This document shows positions 8,436 to 17,352 of a DNA stretch of 64,000 nucleotides, in pieces (position 1 is the stretch's first letter; the number at the start of each line of letters is the position of its first letter). Where the stretch lies: assembly GCA_945893075.1 (NCBI GenBank), contig CAMDDX010000002.1, positions 1 through 64,000 of the forward strand, written 5' to 3'. A program made the position numbers and the translations under genes. The stretch comes from Planctomyces sp. SH-PL62 (GTDB lineage: Bacteria; Planctomycetota; Planctomycetia; Planctomycetales; Planctomycetaceae). A model generated the notes under the pieces. It worked only from the letters and a program-made list of their open reading frames with translations, had not been told where the DNA came from and did not search any database.

Positions 8436-8501
8436 GTAGCCGCAGTCGCCAGACTGCGGGGGCAATGACGAAAGAACCCGCAGTCTGGCGACTGCGGCTA
8501 C
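8436..8501. repeat. inverted repeat, GTAGCC-N8-GCCA double-hairpin family
   Basis: Perfect 25-bp arms GTAGCCGCAGTCGCCAGACTGCGGG / CCCGCAGTCTGGCGACTGCGGCTAC. Confidence 0.92.
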
Positions 8502-10174: not shown

Positions 10175-13100
10175 CTACTGCTTCGGCGGGTTGGCCTCCT
10201 TCACGATCGCTCCGTGTTCGTCGCTCATCACGAGAACCGAAAACTTGCTGACGGCGTCGAGGTCGTTGGTGTTGAGGCTCGAATAGTCGAAGCGGCCGCG
10301 GAGGTCGGTGTAGCCGTCTTTGTAGAACCGCGATGAGCCGTCCGGGCGTTGGGCGTAGACCTTCACGTATGCCTTCGCGATCGGCTTGTTGGTCGTCGCG
10401 TGCGTGACTTTTACTTGGCCGTAGTTCTCGATGACCTGCACGGTCAGCGAGTTCGAGTAGTACGCCTGCGTCTTCGTCTGGCCGCCGCCGGTGATCTCGA
10501 CGAGCACGTTTTTGTTGTGCAGGTCTTTCGGCAGTTCGACCTTCTTCGACCCTTGAGTCACTTCGGTCTGCGCTCGGCGCGGGTCTCCCGACCCCGCCGC
10601 TTCGCTGGACCGAAGGTCTCCATTCTTCTCATCGACGCTGGAATCGCCGCCGCCGTTCGCTGCGGGAGACCTGCGGTCGGGGTCAGCGGCGGGGTCAGGA
10701 GACCCGCGCCGAGCGCTCAGTTTGCGATCCGCCAGCGCGACCGTGTCCACGCGGTTGGGTTGGATCAGGCTGAATTGGCCGCTGAATTGTTGGACGAAGG
10801 GGTTGCGGCTGAAGAGCAATTCGACATCCATCAGGTAGTAGCTGACTTTGACCTCGCCGAGGTTCTGGTGGTTGATTGTGAGCTGTTTCGCCTCGACGGT
10901 GAAGTCGAAGTTCGGGTCGGTCGCGGCGAGTTGTGTTTGGTCTTGGTTGCGGTCTTCGGTGTCGATCTTCTTCGGGCCGGCTCCGTCGATCTCGTCGAGC
11001 TGGGCCTTGATCGAGGCGAACGCTTGTCGCCAGCGGTCCACCGGGTAGTCGGTGTATTTGGTGGCGATGGCTCGCGCGAGCTTCGGGTTGTCGGTGAAGA
11101 AGTCGAGATACGCCTGGAAGTAGTCGTATTGCAGCCGAGTCGGCAGACGCTCCGGGTTCACGCGAGCGAACGTCGTCAGCGATTCCTCGATGCGGTCCTG
11201 CAACAGCAGGTCGTAGGTGACGACCATCAGGTCATCGTCGGTCAGGCTGCGTTGGTAGGAAAACTCGCGCAGCGAGCGGTGATATTGCTCGTTGAACTTC
11301 GCGTTGACGATCTGGCGTTGCTGGCCGAGCCGATGGGCTCGCGCGTTGACCAGCGGTTTGTAGTCGAGGTGCTCGTAGCTGCGACGCGCGACCGGGTCGA
11401 TGGTCAGCATCGCGCTGACCAGCCGGCCCCCGCACTCGTTGACGAGTCCGTCGCTGTGTTGCAGGAACTCGCGAGTCGCGGCGACGTGGTTGTGCTTCAG
11501 GCCGTAAGACCACAGCGTCATGTTGAAAGCGTGCCGCGTGCTCAACAGCGAGATCGCAGCATCAAAGAACTTCGCGTCGTGCATCCGCCACGCCATGCGG
11601 TCGAGGTTCAGACCGTGGACGTTGTGGCCGTTCAAGAACTTCAGGCAGTCGTCGGCCGAGGCGTATTGCGAGACGTAATCCCAACTCTCGGTGTCGATCT
11701 TGGTCGGCTTGTCCACGACGTTGAAGGTGCTCGGCGTCGCGAACGCGATCAGCTCGCCGTTCTTCGCGACGTGAATCGGGAAGTGCGGGAACTGCCCGGC
11801 GGCCGGGAAGTAGAAGAAGTAGTCCAGCGTCTGAGTGTGATACGGCTGCAAGTCCACATGCACGCTCTTGGTCGGCTGGCCGTTGGCGACGGGGATCGCT
11901 CCTTGCGGCACTTGCAGTAGCACGGTCAGCTTCTGCCGAGCGGACGTCGGGTTCGTGACGACCACTTGGCAGCCATAGACGGTGTGAATGACGAACTCGT
12001 CGGCGACGTACTTGTCGATCTGCTCGCCGTTTTCCTGGCGATGCCGGTCGCCGTGCCGGAAGAAATTCTGGCTGACGAGGATCGGCACCTTATCGGCGGC
12101 GGGCTGAGCGGCTTTGACCTCTTCATGGAAGACGATCATCGGGCTGCCGGCCGCGAGCGTCATCTGCGGGCCCTCGAATTTCGATTCATGCTTCGCCGGC
12201 TCGAACGGCAGATCGAGCACCGCCAGCGCGAGCATCATCTCCGAGAAGTTGCGGCTCGCGTCCGCGATGTTCGTGCTGAGGAACGGCTTCGTCGCATCAT
12301 GCTGAGCGTAGTCACGCCAGAACGAGTTGACCGTGATGAGAGCGGGATTCTGCTCGGCGATGGCGAGGTGGTAGTAGTTGTTCTCGGCCCATTCCTTGGT
12401 CGGGTCCATCTTGCGGTAAAGCTGCCGGACATCGGCTCGGCTGTACGCTAAGAAGTGCTCCGCTTTATCGCCAAGCTTCCCGCCGTCCATGTCCTCGTCA
12501 GTCAATTCTCCATTCCTGTTCGAGTCCTTCTTATCAGCGGCGCGTCGGGAGCGTTCAGCCATCGGCTTGCCATCGCGTTCGAGTCCGCGTTTGAGGCGAT
12601 CCACGCCGGCTTCTTCCTTGGCCTTCTCGCGAAGTCCTAGTTGCTGCTTGCCAGCCTTCTTGGCTTCGGCTTGTTCGCCCGCCATCCCCCCCCCAAATCC
12701 GCCGAGTGTTCGATGCGGCCGAGATGCTCCAGCAACCGCGCCGCCAGCAGCGGACGGAGCCGATTCGCTGTTGAGTTGAGTTGGCTCGAACATCACTTCC
12801 GATTCCTTCAGTTGCCGACCGAGATTCAACTTCAAGCCGAGGCCGTCGTCGGTCTCCAGCGAACTCCCCTTCGCCGCCGTGTCGAACAGCAACAAGAACC
12901 GGTCGATGTTCGACGGCTGCAACTTGAACAGCTCGTCGATGTGCCGCGAGGTCTTCGGTCCCTCGCCGTTGATGTGCTGGGCGAGGAACACTCGCTCGGC
13001 AACGTTGAGCTGCCCGTGAGACCACGGTTGCAGGAACGGATCAACCTTGTCGTCCAGCAGCCAGCGGTCGAGGAACGTCTTATCCTTCTTGTTCGCGAGG

Positions 13101-16100
13101 TACGGCTTCACCACCGCGTTGAAGAACTTCGGATCTTTCTTCGCGAGGAACACATTCAACTCGTGGCAGGCGAACTTCGAGTATTTCTCCTTCTGCTCTT
13201 CCGGCTTGAGCTTCGGCCAGTTGAGCAGGAACGAGAACTCGGCCAACTTCGGATCGTGCGTCAGCGTCGTGAACAGCAGATAAACCCGCGCGAGACTGTC
13301 ATACGCCTCGAACTTAGACGTGGCGATGTCCGCCAACGTAAACGGCTGCCCGGCCCCGACCAGACTGATGCGCTTCTGCTGCGTGAAGTGCTTCTTCGGA
13401 TCAAGCCCATTCGCCAACCGCAAATCAATGAAGTGCGACTTCGGCTCGTCCAGCGCGACGCTCCGCCACGTCGTGCTCAGCGGATCGCAGGCGACGACAT
13501 GCAGATGCTGATGCGCACCAAGCAGATCGCGTTTCAACACGATCTTGCCATCCTTGTCCGGCACAAGGTTCACAAACACGGCCGACGCTTCCGCCAGGAA
13601 GTCGAGATTTGCGAAGTCACCGCCGCGTGCGACACCGGCCGCTAGCAATTCGTCGCGAGCCATCGCGCTGGCCGGCGGCGGACCCTTGGCAGCGAAGTCA
13701 TCGCCAACCGCCGCGATCTGCTCGCCGGTCTCGGTCGAACGCAGCACCCACGGATTGAGCAGCAGCGATGGCCGCTCCAGCGTGTTGCCCGGAAACTTCC
13801 GCGCGTACTTGCGGTCGATGATGTAGCGGTACTCGTCGCCGATGTTGCGGCCCGCGAGATACACCGACTCGGCCGGCGACGTGCGGATCGCATACGGCTC
13901 GGACTGCGAAACCTTCGCGAGATGATTTCCTGCCGCGTACGCCGGAGCGAACCGCGTCGCAAACAAATGCACGCGAGCAAACTTGTTAGCGTTGCTGAGC
14001 TGGATGACGAGATCCTTGTCGTCCGCTTTGACGCTCTCAATCTGCAACGCCTTGAGCGGCTTCGTTTCAAGCTGCCGCACATTGCCAAGCACATAGCCAT
14101 GCTTCGCCTCGCCGGGAGCGATGCGAATGCGGACGTGCCGATTCAACGACTTCAACCACAGGTCGTAGTCTCCTGATTTCAATCCGCTGATCGTGAGGAG
14201 TCCGTTCTTGATTGACAGGTTTTTGTTCCGGTCGGCAACAAACGAATCGCCGCGAAGTTCGAGAAGGGAGACCTGCGGTAATCCAAGCTTGAATTCATCA
14301 TCATCTGAGGAGCCCCAACTCAGGTACGGCAGAGTCAGCGCTTCGCCGACTTGGCCGTGCAGTGATTGCAGATAGGTGTGCTCGTCTGGCCGAATCGGCC
14401 AAGCGTGCTGAGTTCCTTCGGGACTGGTCGCTGTGATCGCGACGATGTCTACAAGGTGGCCGAGTGACACTCGGCCAGTCTTGTCGGACTTAAACGTCAA
14501 ATGCTTCGGGTCGCGGAAGTCGCGATGCTTGACCACGATTTGTATTGGCCGCGACGTCTTCGGCTCGCCCGTCTTGCCGAGCAGTTCGACGAAGTAGCCG
14601 CTCGCCGTGCGCAGCAAATGCAGGTCTTCGATCTTGTCCGTCCGGTCCATCTCGTTGAGCGCGAACGACTCGTTTGCGGCCAGCGCGATCGTCTGATTCG
14701 TGCTGAGCACTTTGACCTGCCCGATCAACTGGAAGCTCAACGCCTGCACGCGCGGCGGGACAGAAAACTCGTGCGTCGATTCGCGGTCCTCGAACAATTT
14801 GAAATTCGGAATCTCAGTCGAGGACGCCACGCCGTCATGATCGGTCGAAACGATTTGCAGTTTGACTTGCTCCAGCAACTTCGTGCTGACCGGCGTCCCG
14901 TTCAGCGTGAGTTGCGGCCGAACGACAACCGTCGCCTTCTTGCGACTCAGCAGCGATTCGCGATCGACAAAGATGCCGGCCGAGAGTGCGAACGCTTCGC
15001 CTTCGTGTTGGAAGTAATCGAGGCAGGCATATTCGTGGGATAGGCTTCCAGCCTGTCGTTTTTCTTTGTCGTCTTCCTTCGACAGGCTGGAAGCCTGTCC
15101 CACGAGGACCACCGGCTGTCGGCTCGGCTGATGCGTGAACGGGACGATGATCTCGCCGGACTTGTCGGCGACGTACTCGTGCCCGCTCAGCAGGATGCGA
15201 GCGTCATCGACTTTCTGATTCTTCTCGTCGAGGATCGTGAAGACTTGCCCGGCGGTTCCGGTCTTCGCGAGGAATTTGAGTTTGCCTTTGCGAATCAGCG
15301 CCCGGCTGCTGCGGCCGTTGCCGATGAAATCGACGACGTACACGCCCGGCTTCTTCAGTTCGGGGAACTCGAAGCGGCGGCGGACTCGGCGGAACGATGT
15401 GTCGTTGTAGGTGTGTGTGGTCTCGCGATTGGCGACCAGGCCGTCGAGGTTCACGTCGGTGTCCACTTCGCGCAGTTGCTCGCGGTAGAAATTCTTGGTG
15501 TTGATCTCGAAGACCTTCACGATCAGCGTGCCGACGCTCTTGACGTGCAGGTCCAGCGCAACCGGCTCATCGGCCGAGTAGGTCGTGCGGTTCGTCGGAT
15601 CGAATTCGATCTCGACCCGCTGTTTGAGTTGCTGGAAGAGTTCGGCAGGCAGCATCGCGGCCCATTGCTCCGGCTCGCCGAGTCCGTTGAGGATCTTCGT
15701 TTCGGCGAACAGATGCTTGAGATAGATGTCGTTGATGAACGGCTCGAATTCCTTCGGGTTCGCAGCGTCCAACAAGAAATGTTGCAGATAGCTGCGGACG
15801 AGCGGCTCATCATTCGCGACCGGAGGCAGCAGCGACCCCGGACGCAAGTCGATGCTGACGTCAGCGGGGAATTGCTTCCGCGCCTGCGATTCGGCCATCG
15901 CCTTCGACAGGTACCCGACCGGCCGAGGCAATTGCAGGTATGCCAAGAAGCGATCCTTATCGAGCTTGCCGAGCGACCGATCCAGCCACAACCGGTGATA
16001 CAGCGTCTGCGCCTTGAGCGAGTTCTGCACCGGCGGCAATTTCGCGGCGAACGCCGACAACCGATCGAGATACGCCGTCATCGCCTTCGAGTCGTGCTGC

Positions 16101-16870
16101 CAATCTTCATCCGGCCCCGGCTGCAATCGGACCAGCGACGCGACGACCCAATGCTGATTGGTGATGAGGTCCGGCTTCGACTTCAGCAACTCATCAAGCT
16201 GCGCCTGCGTCAGCAACCGATGAATGTTGAACTGCCCGAACCCGCCGGAGTTCGGATGCCCGAAGTCGTCGAGGATCAACTTCGTCAGCGCCGCGTAATC
16301 CGGCCGAGCCAATCGCGAGATCAAATGCCGCCGCCGATCCCCGTCCAGCTTTTCGTTGACCAGCCAATCGAATGACGCATCCGTGAAGCCTTCAGTATTC
16401 GGCTGCTGCAAGGCTTGCTGCATCAACGTTGCGCGCGTGATCCACTGTGGATCGAGCTTCGTCGGCAGGTTCGGCTCGACGCCGAGTTCTTCCTTCTGAT
16501 GCCCGAAGTTCACCCCCAGCTTGTTGCGCAGGAACTCCAACGTCTTCTGAGGATTCTTGTCGTAGGTCAGCAATGCCTGCCGCGCGAGGATCTCGTTGAC
16601 GCGCTGCGTGTGCCCGATCTTCTGAATCCACTGCGTGACCAGCGGTTCGACCTTGTCGAACTGCTCGGCCTGCTGCGCGTGCAGGCAGTGGAAGTAATAA
16701 AAGTCTTCCGTCCCCGGCACGAGCTGCTTGAGCGGCACCGCTCGATCCGGCGCGAGGGCGAAGTCCTCGATGAAGTTGATCTCACCGGCACGAGTCTGTT
16801 CGATCCCCACCGTTCCGATACCAATTGTCAAAGTCACGCCGACCGCTCGAAGCCAATGAGACCATCGCAT
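10175..16870 (-). CDS. very large secreted protein, possibly alpha-2-macroglobulin/MG-domain related
   Basis: Continuous ORF over 2200 aa with signal peptide (MRWSHWLRAVGVTLTIGIGTVGIEQTRAG); MG-like beta-rich segments (YSADEPVALDLHVKSVGTLIVKVFEINTKNFYREQL); C-terminal carboxypeptidase-regulatory-like segment. Confidence 0.8.
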   Translation of the reverse strand: MRWSHWLRAVGVTLTIGIGTVGIEQTRAGEINFIEDFALAPDRAVPLKQLVPGTEDFYYFHCLHAQQAEQFDKVEPLVTQWIQKIGHTQRVNEILARQALLTYDKNPQKTLEFLRNKLGVNFGHQKEELGVEPNLPTKLDPQWITRATLMQQALQQPNTEGFTDASFDWLVNEKLDGDRRRHLISRLARPDYAALTKLILDDFGHPNSGGFGQFNIHRLLTQAQLDELLKSKPDLITNQHWVVASLVRLQPGPDEDWQHDSKAMTAYLDRLSAFAAKLPPVQNSLKAQTLYHRLWLDRSLGKLDKDRFLAYLQLPRPVGYLSKAMAESQARKQFPADVSIDLRPGSLLPPVANDEPLVRSYLQHFLLDAANPKEFEPFINDIYLKHLFAETKILNGLGEPEQWAAMLPAELFQQLKQRVEIEFDPTNRTTYSADEPVALDLHVKSVGTLIVKVFEINTKNFYREQLREVDTDVNLDGLVANRETTHTYNDTSFRRVRRRFEFPELKKPGVYVVDFIGNGRSSRALIRKGKLKFLAKTGTAGQVFTILDEKNQKVDDARILLSGHEYVADKSGEIIVPFTHQPSRQPVVLVGQASSLSKEDDKEKRQAGSLSHEYACLDYFQHEGEAFALSAGIFVDRESLLSRKKATVVVRPQLTLNGTPVSTKLLEQVKLQIVSTDHDGVASSTEIPNFKLFEDRESTHEFSVPPRVQALSFQLIGQVKVLSTNQTIALAANESFALNEMDRTDKIEDLHLLRTASGYFVELLGKTGEPKTSRPIQIVVKHRDFRDPKHLTFKSDKTGRVSLGHLVDIVAITATSPEGTQHAWPIRPDEHTYLQSLHGQVGEALTLPYLSWGSSDDDEFKLGLPQVSLLELRGDSFVADRNKNLSIKNGLLTISGLKSGDYDLWLKSLNRHVRIRIAPGEAKHGYVLGNVRQLETKPLKALQIESVKADDKDLVIQLSNANKFARVHLFATRFAPAYAAGNHLAKVSQSEPYAIRTSPAESVYLAGRNIGDEYRYIIDRKYARKFPGNTLERPSLLLNPWVLRSTETGEQIAAVGDDFAAKGPPPASAMARDELLAAGVARGGDFANLDFLAEASAVFVNLVPDKDGKIVLKRDLLGAHQHLHVVACDPLSTTWRSVALDEPKSHFIDLRLANGLDPKKHFTQQKRISLVGAGQPFTLADIATSKFEAYDSLARVYLLFTTLTHDPKLAEFSFLLNWPKLKPEEQKEKYSKFACHELNVFLAKKDPKFFNAVVKPYLANKKDKTFLDRWLLDDKVDPFLQPWSHGQLNVAERVFLAQHINGEGPKTSRHIDELFKLQPSNIDRFLLLFDTAAKGSSLETDDGLGLKLNLGRQLKESEVMFEPTQLNSESAPSAAGGAVAGASRPHRTLGGFGGGMAGEQAEAKKAGKQQLGLREKAKEEAGVDRLKRGLERDGKPMAERSRRAADKKDSNRNGELTDEDMDGGKLGDKAEHFLAYSRADVRQLYRKMDPTKEWAENNYYHLAIAEQNPALITVNSFWRDYAQHDATKPFLSTNIADASRNFSEMMLALAVLDLPFEPAKHESKFEGPQMTLAAGSPMIVFHEEVKAAQPAADKVPILVSQNFFRHGDRHRQENGEQIDKYVADEFVIHTVYGCQVVVTNPTSARQKLTVLLQVPQGAIPVANGQPTKSVHVDLQPYHTQTLDYFFYFPAAGQFPHFPIHVAKNGELIAFATPSTFNVVDKPTKIDTESWDYVSQYASADDCLKFLNGHNVHGLNLDRMAWRMHDAKFFDAAISLLSTRHAFNMTLWSYGLKHNHVAATREFLQHSDGLVNECGGRLVSAMLTIDPVARRSYEHLDYKPLVNARAHRLGQQRQIVNAKFNEQYHRSLREFSYQRSLTDDDLMVVTYDLLLQDRIEESLTTFARVNPERLPTRLQYDYFQAYLDFFTDNPKLARAIATKYTDYPVDRWRQAFASIKAQLDEIDGAGPKKIDTEDRNQDQTQLAATDPNFDFTVEAKQLTINHQNLGEVKVSYYLMDVELLFSRNPFVQQFSGQFSLIQPNRVDTVALADRKLSARRGSPDPAADPDRRSPAANGGGDSSVDEKNGDLRSSEAAGSGDPRRAQTEVTQGSKKVELPKDLHNKNVLVEITGGGQTKTQAYYSNSLTVQVIENYGQVKVTHATTNKPIAKAYVKVYAQRPDGSSRFYKDGYTDLRGRFDYSSLNTNDLDAVSKFSVLVMSDEHGAIVKEANPPKQ
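10570..10716. repeat. inverted repeat inside the 2.2-kaa coding sequence
   Basis: 52-bp arms 10570-10621 and 10665-10716, about 45/52; encodes SARRGSPDPAADPDRRSP...DLRSSEAAGSGDPRRAQ in frame. Confidence 0.9.
15034..15104. repeat. inverted repeat inside the 2.2-kaa coding sequence
   Basis: CGTGGGATAGGCTTCCAGCCTGTCG / CGACAGGCTGGAAGCCTGTCCCACG, 24/25; encodes LVGQASSLSKEDDKEKRQAGSLSHE in frame. Confidence 0.92.
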
Positions 16871-17352
16871 GGGAACCTCGCTGAAAAGTTGATGACGGGT
16901 GAATGGAGAGACCATCCGCGCAGATTGTGAGTCGCCTCAGAACAGGGACGTGCCAAGAGGCGGTCGCCTTAGGAAAAGTTCCCGCGGATTCTACAAAGGG
17001 ACCGAAAGAAGTACCCAGCCACGCGGTGTTTCAAAGTGCTCAGTCATCAGCCGTGACCGGCCGATGGCCGTCCGCCGGATTCCGATCGCCGTGATTCTTG
17101 TTCCGAAGAATCCCATGCGGCATTGCGTCGTGGTGATCCGTGACATCCGCGTCATCCGTGTGCTCTTCAGGGATTGCGCGGCCTGGAGAGAACACGGATC
17201 ACACAGATGACACGGATGCGGTCGGAGCCTCCTGACGCTGATGGTTTGCCAATTCCCAACCGCAGTTCAAGTTGATTGACGCTCCGCCGCTGAGATCGCG
17301 ATTATCCGGTCGCTCACCGAGTTTCGTTTCACGATCTTTTTCTGAGGCCCAC

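What the first reader, a model, noticed from the sequence alone, without database searches (positions are those of the whole stretch)
15034..15104. Palindrome inserted in frame within the giant secreted-protein gene (copy 1)
A 25-bp arm inverted repeat (24/25) lies inside the 2.2-kaa ORF and is translated as LVGQASSLSKEDDKEKRQAGSLSHE without breaking frame. This implies either tolerance of insertion in a linker or an element whose sequence is adapted to be read through.
Basis: seen in the sequence. Interest (0 to 1): 0.6.

Follow-up and report, generated by a model that had tools for sequence, protein, structure and literature searches.

The report
Mobile palindrome in a permissive loop
A small mobile DNA palindrome has been inserted in frame into a loop of a large planctomycete protein; related species carry different palindromes, or none, at exactly the same spot, so some protein loops act as landing pads whose occupants turn over while the reading frame is kept.

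Summary
The palindrome is real: 15035-15103, two 23-nt arms, z about -13 against shuffles. It lies in frame in a 2246-aa ORF on the minus strand and encodes aa 605-627 (VGQASSLSKEDDKEKRQAGSLSH). It is a REPIN-type element: two inverted GT(A/G)G-tagged REP hairpins around a variable spacer. I found 150 such doublets in 1.53 Mb from four congeners; 37% lie inside long ORFs, against 63-69% of random positions, and start on a codon boundary in 41 of 56 cases.

Orthologues show the segment is an insertion. Five congeners and nearly all other genera lack it (...xGEF...). Six of 11 scored congeners carry different GTRG hairpins at exactly this site, always changing length by a multiple of 3. The predicted structure puts it in a disordered loop between two beta strands. 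Of six further in-gene sites chosen without looking at orthologues, four (one in a RarA-like gene) hold unrelated palindrome families in different species; at a fifth one REPIN is inherited vertically with compensatory arm changes.

Best reading: RAYT-type REP doublets persist in frame only in permissive loops and turn over there. Precedents exist in Rickettsia (RPE), Xanthomonas recB and Opitutus. New here are extent, unrelated families per slot, nesting, and hairpin-preserving change. How occupants are exchanged is not shown.

The parts
10175..16915 (-). Host gene: 2246-aa ORF, likely exported, macroglobulin-type beta-domain protein
   Evidence: Open frame; no Pfam or PDB sequence hit; model of aa 440-900 best matches TEP1, alpha-2-macroglobulin and complement C5 by Foldseek, E 3e-9 to 4e-8, low overall TM; dN/dS 0.15-0.21
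15035..15103 (.). In-frame REPIN-type element, 69 nt, codes aa 605-627; replaces 9 nt of the empty allele
15035..15057 (+). REP arm 1, GTGGGATAGGCTTCCAGCCTGTC (tag GTGG plus hairpin)
15058..15080 (.). Spacer, 23 nt, codes the hydrophilic middle (SKEDDKEK)
   Evidence: spacers are mostly unique to each copy of the element
15081..15103 (-). REP arm 2, GTGGGACAGGCTTCCAGCCTGTC on the minus strand
14270..14320 (-). Second slot of the same gene (aa ~866-882): decayed in this genome, intact GTAGG-tagged doublets or single hairpins in most congeners
10570..10716 (.). Third slot: 147-nt in-frame palindrome of another family (ARRGSPDPAADPDRRSPA...), shared with G005; a different palindrome in G010; absent in others

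Best explanation
The segment is a REPIN-type miniature element (an inverted doublet of GTRG-tagged REP hairpins) inserted in frame into a surface loop of a large exported macroglobulin-like protein. Shown: the element and its family, the empty alleles, the loop position in a model, frame conservation, purifying selection on the gene, and occupation of the same site by different hairpin families in sister species. Inferred: such palindromes are spread by RAYT-type (Y1 HUH) transposases; most insertions into genes are removed by selection; those in permissive loops persist, and a loop that accepted one keeps accepting others. Inside a slot, occupants then change by vertical decay, loss of one arm, hairpin-preserving change of arm sequence, nesting, and replacement by unrelated palindromes. 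The peptide most likely has no function beyond being harmless.
For: Family: 150 GTRG doublets with arms at least 75% alike in 1.53 Mb from G000, G005, G003, G006; arm hits in all 12 genus genomes, 0 hits to the reversed control pattern. Insertion: congeners G002, G004, G006, G010, G011 and nearly all other-genus orthologues are empty; 43 of 50 scored loci have zero extra residues. Same site, different hairpins: G000 GTGGGAYAGGCTTCC, G005 GTGGGGCACGTTT, G003 GTAGGTTGGGTTT, G007 GTAGCCAAGGCTGCT with GTGGCCGACGCT-type, G008 GTGGGGGAGGCGTCT, G001 single GTAGGGCGGGTTT; arms pair in 95% of cells with 24 double-sided changes, 0 of 500 shuffles as high. Generality: sites A, B, C, E hold unrelated families in different species; all length differences within a slot are multiples of 3. 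Selection: in-ORF rate 37% against 63-69% for random positions; codon-boundary start 41/56. Structure: low-pLDDT loop between beta strands. RAYT: seven Y1_Tnp genes over the Pfam cut-off, three of them with other palindromes immediately alongside.
Against: No RAYT in this genome is directly flanked by the GTGGGACAGGCTTCC family; the tested RAYTs score below the NCBIfam cut-off (61-70 against 80 bits). All filled alleles at this site have identical junctions and replace the same 9 nt, which independent insertions into a permissive loop would not obviously give. Flanking DNA does not group filled species together, which a single origin would predict in the absence of recombination. No protein-level evidence that the peptide is made.
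Confidence: 0.84

Rival explanations
1. On how the occupants came to differ: one ancestral REPIN entered this site before the genus diversified and was inherited; its arms changed in place (conversion by, or exchange with, other REP families, or palindrome template-switch correction), and empty alleles reflect loss or replacement by recombination.
For: Identical junctions and the same 9 nt replaced in all filled congeners. At site D vertical descent is clear: spacers are alike far beyond random spacers while one arm flips CACGTT/AACGTG to CAGGTT/AACCTG. At slot 2 the spacer is shared by G001, G005 and G006 although the stems differ. At site E two GTRG families share identical outer junctions.
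Against: Spacers at this site are not more alike than composition predicts (mono-shuffle p 0.14). Empty alleles keep the outgroup-like xGEF motif, so they look ancestral. The filled state is scattered on the gene tree and local flanks do not cluster.
Confidence: 0.4
2. On the same question: independent insertions of different families at this position, driven by target-site preference of the transposase plus protein tolerance.
For: Elements are flanked by C and G in about 64% of cases each. Unrelated palindromes (not only GTRG type) occupy the same slots at A, B, C and E. Filled states are scattered on the tree.
Against: A C|G preference is far too weak to fix the position to the base. Six alleles share both junctions exactly.
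Confidence: 0.4
3. The hairpin is kept for a host function (mRNA structure, translational pausing, or a useful peptide).
For: Hairpin pairing is kept across species although sequence and peptide change (weaker at site D). Slots stay filled in most species at A, B, D, E.
Against: Five congeners lack the element without loss of the gene; decayed and single-hairpin versions occur; GTRG doublets are depleted in genes. Pairing at this site follows automatically if each allele belongs to an active REP family.
Confidence: 0.1
4. Assembly artefact or chance palindrome.
For: The named congener records are metagenome assemblies.
Against: Multi-copy family, orthologous copies in several independent genomes, frame kept throughout, strong energy z-score.
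Confidence: 0.01

Closest known systems
Intragenic GTAG-tagged REP dimers (Di Nocera et al. 2013, PMC3733652), e.g. in Opitutus terrae uvrA and Xanthomonas recB
   Same: GT-tagged hairpin doublets inside ORFs coding 20-30 aa; reported from the PVC superphylum; the paper notes different REPs at about the same site in X. campestris and X. oryzae recB
   Different: Here several slots were checked across up to 12 congeners, with up to seven occupant types per slot, nested elements and empty alleles; this copy bears GTGG rather than GTAG
Rickettsia palindromic elements (RPE) and Wolbachia WPE (Ogata et al. 2000, cited in PMC2229807; R. japonica genome PMC3767692)
   Same: In-frame palindromes in conserved genes, in solvent-exposed positions; RPE-4, -6, -7 occupy the same loci of orthologues; a hotspot or a common origin is discussed
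   Different: RPEs are longer and belong to other families; the hosts are obligate intracellular; here GTRG REP doublets with two internal hairpins, in 5-9 Mb genomes of planctomycetes
REPINs with RAYT (Bertels and Rainey 2011, PMC3116915)
   Same: Inverted REP doublet with spacer, multi-copy, several families per genome, Y1 transposases present
   Different: Pseudomonas REPINs are described in extragenic space; here over a third lie in long ORFs; direct RAYT linkage of this family was not found

Membership tests
REPIN (RAYT-associated REP doublet) | Two REP hairpins in inverted orientation separated by a spacer | tested here: met
REPIN (RAYT-associated REP doublet) | Multi-copy family in the genome | tested here: met
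   This subfamily is low-copy in G000 (9 arm hits with up to 2 mismatches, 4 doublets); the GTRG superfamily has 167 arm hits to one generic pattern and 53 doublets in 454 kb
REPIN (RAYT-associated REP doublet) | 5' GTAG-type tetranucleotide tag | tested here: inconclusive
   This copy has GTGG; related families in the same genomes have GTAG
REPIN (RAYT-associated REP doublet) | RAYT gene in the genome | tested here: met
   Seven PF01797 hits over cut-off; best NCBIfam match of the three tested is REP_Tyr_transpos, below its cut-off
REPIN (RAYT-associated REP doublet) | RAYT flanked by the same REP family | tested here: not met
   None of the G000 RAYT loci carries this family; other palindromes flank RAYTs at L048, L049, L050; a GTGGGGCACGTT doublet lies about 1.4 kb from the one in L045. 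Hence filed as REPIN-type in build, not as a proven RAYT-associated REPIN
REPIN (RAYT-associated REP doublet) | Mobilised by RAYT | not testable with these tools
   needs an experiment
Rickettsia palindromic element (RPE) | Palindrome inserted in frame in protein genes | tested here: met
Rickettsia palindromic element (RPE) | RPE length of 100-150 nt and Rickettsiales host | tested here: not met
   69 nt, planctomycete host; works like an RPE but is not one

The most novel reading that the evidence does not exclude
Genes of this planctomycete genus contain permanent in-frame palindrome slots in which the resident element is exchanged in place, hairpin for hairpin, for members of other REP families (a cassette exchange by RAYTs or templated conversion), so that a hairpin is kept at one coding position through the history of the genus while its sequence and the encoded peptide change completely.
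Probability: 0.25. Interest if true: 0.75.

Novelty: new variant of a known kind. Interest (0 to 1): 0.52.

Why it matters
It shows on a natural scale where proteins tolerate 15-40 extra residues, including a RarA-like conserved protein, and how selfish hairpins and reading frames coexist. Comparing slots among congeners offers a direct way to separate new insertion, in-place exchange and loss of REP elements, a long-standing open point in REP/RAYT biology.

Tried and rejected
Single shared haplotype around filled alleles: local trees and allele association showed none. Common descent of the spacers at this site: similarity beyond random spacers (p 0.005) vanished against composition shuffles (p 0.14). 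Strong target-site motif: only a weak C|G preference. Host protein identification by sequence: no Pfam or PDB sequence hit; only the fold comparison helped. Direct flanking of a RAYT by this REP family: not found. The Rickettsia paper PMC186582 is not held.

Full report
Observation. The inverted repeat is present at the stated place. GTGGGATAGGCTTCCAGCCTGTC (15035-15057), a 23-nt spacer, and the inverted copy GACAGGCTGGAAGCCTGTCCCAC (15081-15103) fold far better than shuffles (z -12.9 as DNA, -13.4 as RNA). The ORF 10175-16915 on the minus strand reads through it. Each arm is itself a hairpin, so the object is a doublet of palindromes.

Host gene. The 2246-aa protein has no Pfam or PDB sequence match. 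The AlphaFold2 model of aa 440-900 (16 orthologues, mean pLDDT 79.5) is a string of beta domains whose best Foldseek matches are TEP1, alpha-2-macroglobulin and complement C5 (global TM is low, perhaps because domain orientations differ), so a macroglobulin-type architecture is likely. The N terminus looks like a signal peptide by inspection only. dN/dS against five congeners is 0.15-0.21: the gene is under purifying selection. The insert (model residues 166-188) fills a loop, mostly with pLDDT below 50, between strands 159-168 and 189-198.

It is an insertion. Orthologues from the genus and from other planctomycetes were aligned. Outside the genus nearly all lack any extra residue (motif xGEF); G012, L096, L101 and L106 have short extras. 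Within the genus, G002, G004, G006, G010, G011 are empty, while G000, G007, G005, G003, G008 carry two-armed palindromes and G001 a single hairpin. All sit between the same two codons (CTC or CTT ... GAG or GAA), replace the same 9 nt, and change length by +60, +63, +60, +66, +66, +18 nt. Their arms belong to different sequences: GTGGGAYAGGCTTCC, GTAGCCAAGGCTGCT with a GTGGCCGACGCT-type partner, GTGGGGCACGTTT, GTAGGTTGGGTTT, GTGGGGGAGGCGTCT, GTAGGGCGGGTTT. Across the eleven arms 95% of stem positions pair, with 24 double-sided changes; no shuffle of 500 reaches this.

Family. A pattern merging four of these arm types hits all 12 genus genomes (9 to 436 hits, none for the reversed control). In 1.53 Mb from four genomes a script found 150 GTRG-tagged doublets with similar arms and mostly unique spacers. 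G005's own type (GTGGGGCACGTT) is frequent in G005. Of the 150, 56 lie well inside ORFs of at least 300 aa (37%), against 63-69% of random 70-mers: in-gene copies are under-represented but common. In-ORF copies start on a codon boundary in 41 of 56 cases, 18 of 21 for GTGGG-tagged ones. GTAG-tagged elements cannot use one frame because of TAG, but GTGGG left arms are open in all three, so the bias suggests selection against the other peptides. ORFs here are open frames, not annotated genes.

Is same-site turnover general? Six in-gene doublets of G000 were picked from the census for long ORFs, before looking at orthologues, and their flanks searched in the congeners. Site A (12 species): one GTAGGTCAGGC doublet in G000, G003, G007, G010 (decayed in G009), and unrelated palindromes in G006/G002, G005, G001, G011, G008. 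Site B: a GTAGGTCGGGC doublet, a GGCGAGCGGGGCGGCGTCAGCCCC palindrome, or a GTGGCCGACGCT type. Site C: doublets and a compound of two families. Site D: the same doublet in nine species, with homologous spacers. Site E, in a RarA-like AAA+ gene (identified by eye): a GTGGGACAGGCTTCT doublet (G000, G006), a GTGGGGCAGG-type remnant with a second palindrome nested inside (G003, G007; more eroded in G010), or an AGCACGACGCG palindrome (G004, G005, G011). Site F: filled in three species, empty in five. Within each slot all length differences are multiples of three. The gene studied here has two more such sites (aa about 866 and aa about 2066). With a few hundred in-gene doublets per genome, coincidence to within a few bases at most sites cannot be chance (inference).

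How occupants change. Two processes are visible. First, hairpin-preserving change in place: at site D spacers are clearly homologous (G000 against G006, G003 and G010 above all 741 random spacer pairs), yet the left arm is CACGTT/AACGTG in G000 and G003 and CAGGTT/AACCTG in others; the covariation exceeds shuffles but rests on few changes. Slot 2 shows the same tendency. Second, replacement or nesting by unrelated palindromes (A, B, C, E). For the present site the data do not decide: identical junctions argue for one ancestral insertion with exchange of arms; the spacer similarity is explained by composition, the empty alleles look ancestral, and flanking DNA shows no shared haplotype, which argue for repeated gain.

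Mobilisation. G000 has seven Y1_Tnp genes over the Pfam cut-off; the three tested best match REP_Tyr_transpos below its cut-off. Palindromes sit immediately beside three of these genes (L048, L049, L050), a RAYT-like arrangement, but none of the loci carries the family of this finding. That RAYTs move it is therefore inference from the known REP/RAYT system.

Comparison. Intragenic GTAG REP dimers coding 20-30 aa are known, including from the PVC superphylum, and one case of different REPs at about the same site of orthologues (Xanthomonas recB) was noted (PMC3733652). [quoted passage not shown]; also PMC2229807). So the kind is known; the variant is the planctomycete GTRG system with many unrelated families per slot, nesting, single-hairpin derivatives and compensatory change.

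Verdict. The element is a REPIN-type doublet in a permissive loop, probably without benefit to the host. The unexpected part is that the loop is a shared slot with changing occupants.

Noticed in passing
window 10570-10716: A 147-nt in-frame palindrome (ARRGSPDPAADPDRRSPA...) near the C terminus of the same gene; similar coding matches recur in many places of G000, G003, G005, G006, G007 and G010, in some places on both strands.
   Followed up: partly
window 8436-8501 and congeners (L013, L014, L015): A site that does not look coding (longest ORF spanning it 222 aa) also carries different palindromes in each species: GTAGCCGCAGTCGCC in G000, GAGCGGCACGGCGCTAGCCGCC in G010, GAGCCGGAGGGCGTCAGCCCCC in G007, GTAGGTTGGGACTCC in G003.
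   Followed up: no
L048 1328-2599: A RAYT whose C terminus matches DnaA (NCBIfam, below cut-off) carries the same 99-100-nt palindrome (GGGGTCGGGTCTACGATTTTTCGGATTTGGC) at its 5' end, inside its ORF and at its 3' end.
   Followed up: partly
L049 742-868, 1938-2063, 3026-3151: A second RAYT is flanked on both sides by copies of another long palindrome (GGGGTCAGGTGTTCTGATTTCTGTTT).
   Followed up: partly
L299-L306 (RarA-like gene): A RarA-like AAA+ protein carries palindromic inserts of three unrelated families at one position in its interior, one of them nested in another.
   Followed up: partly
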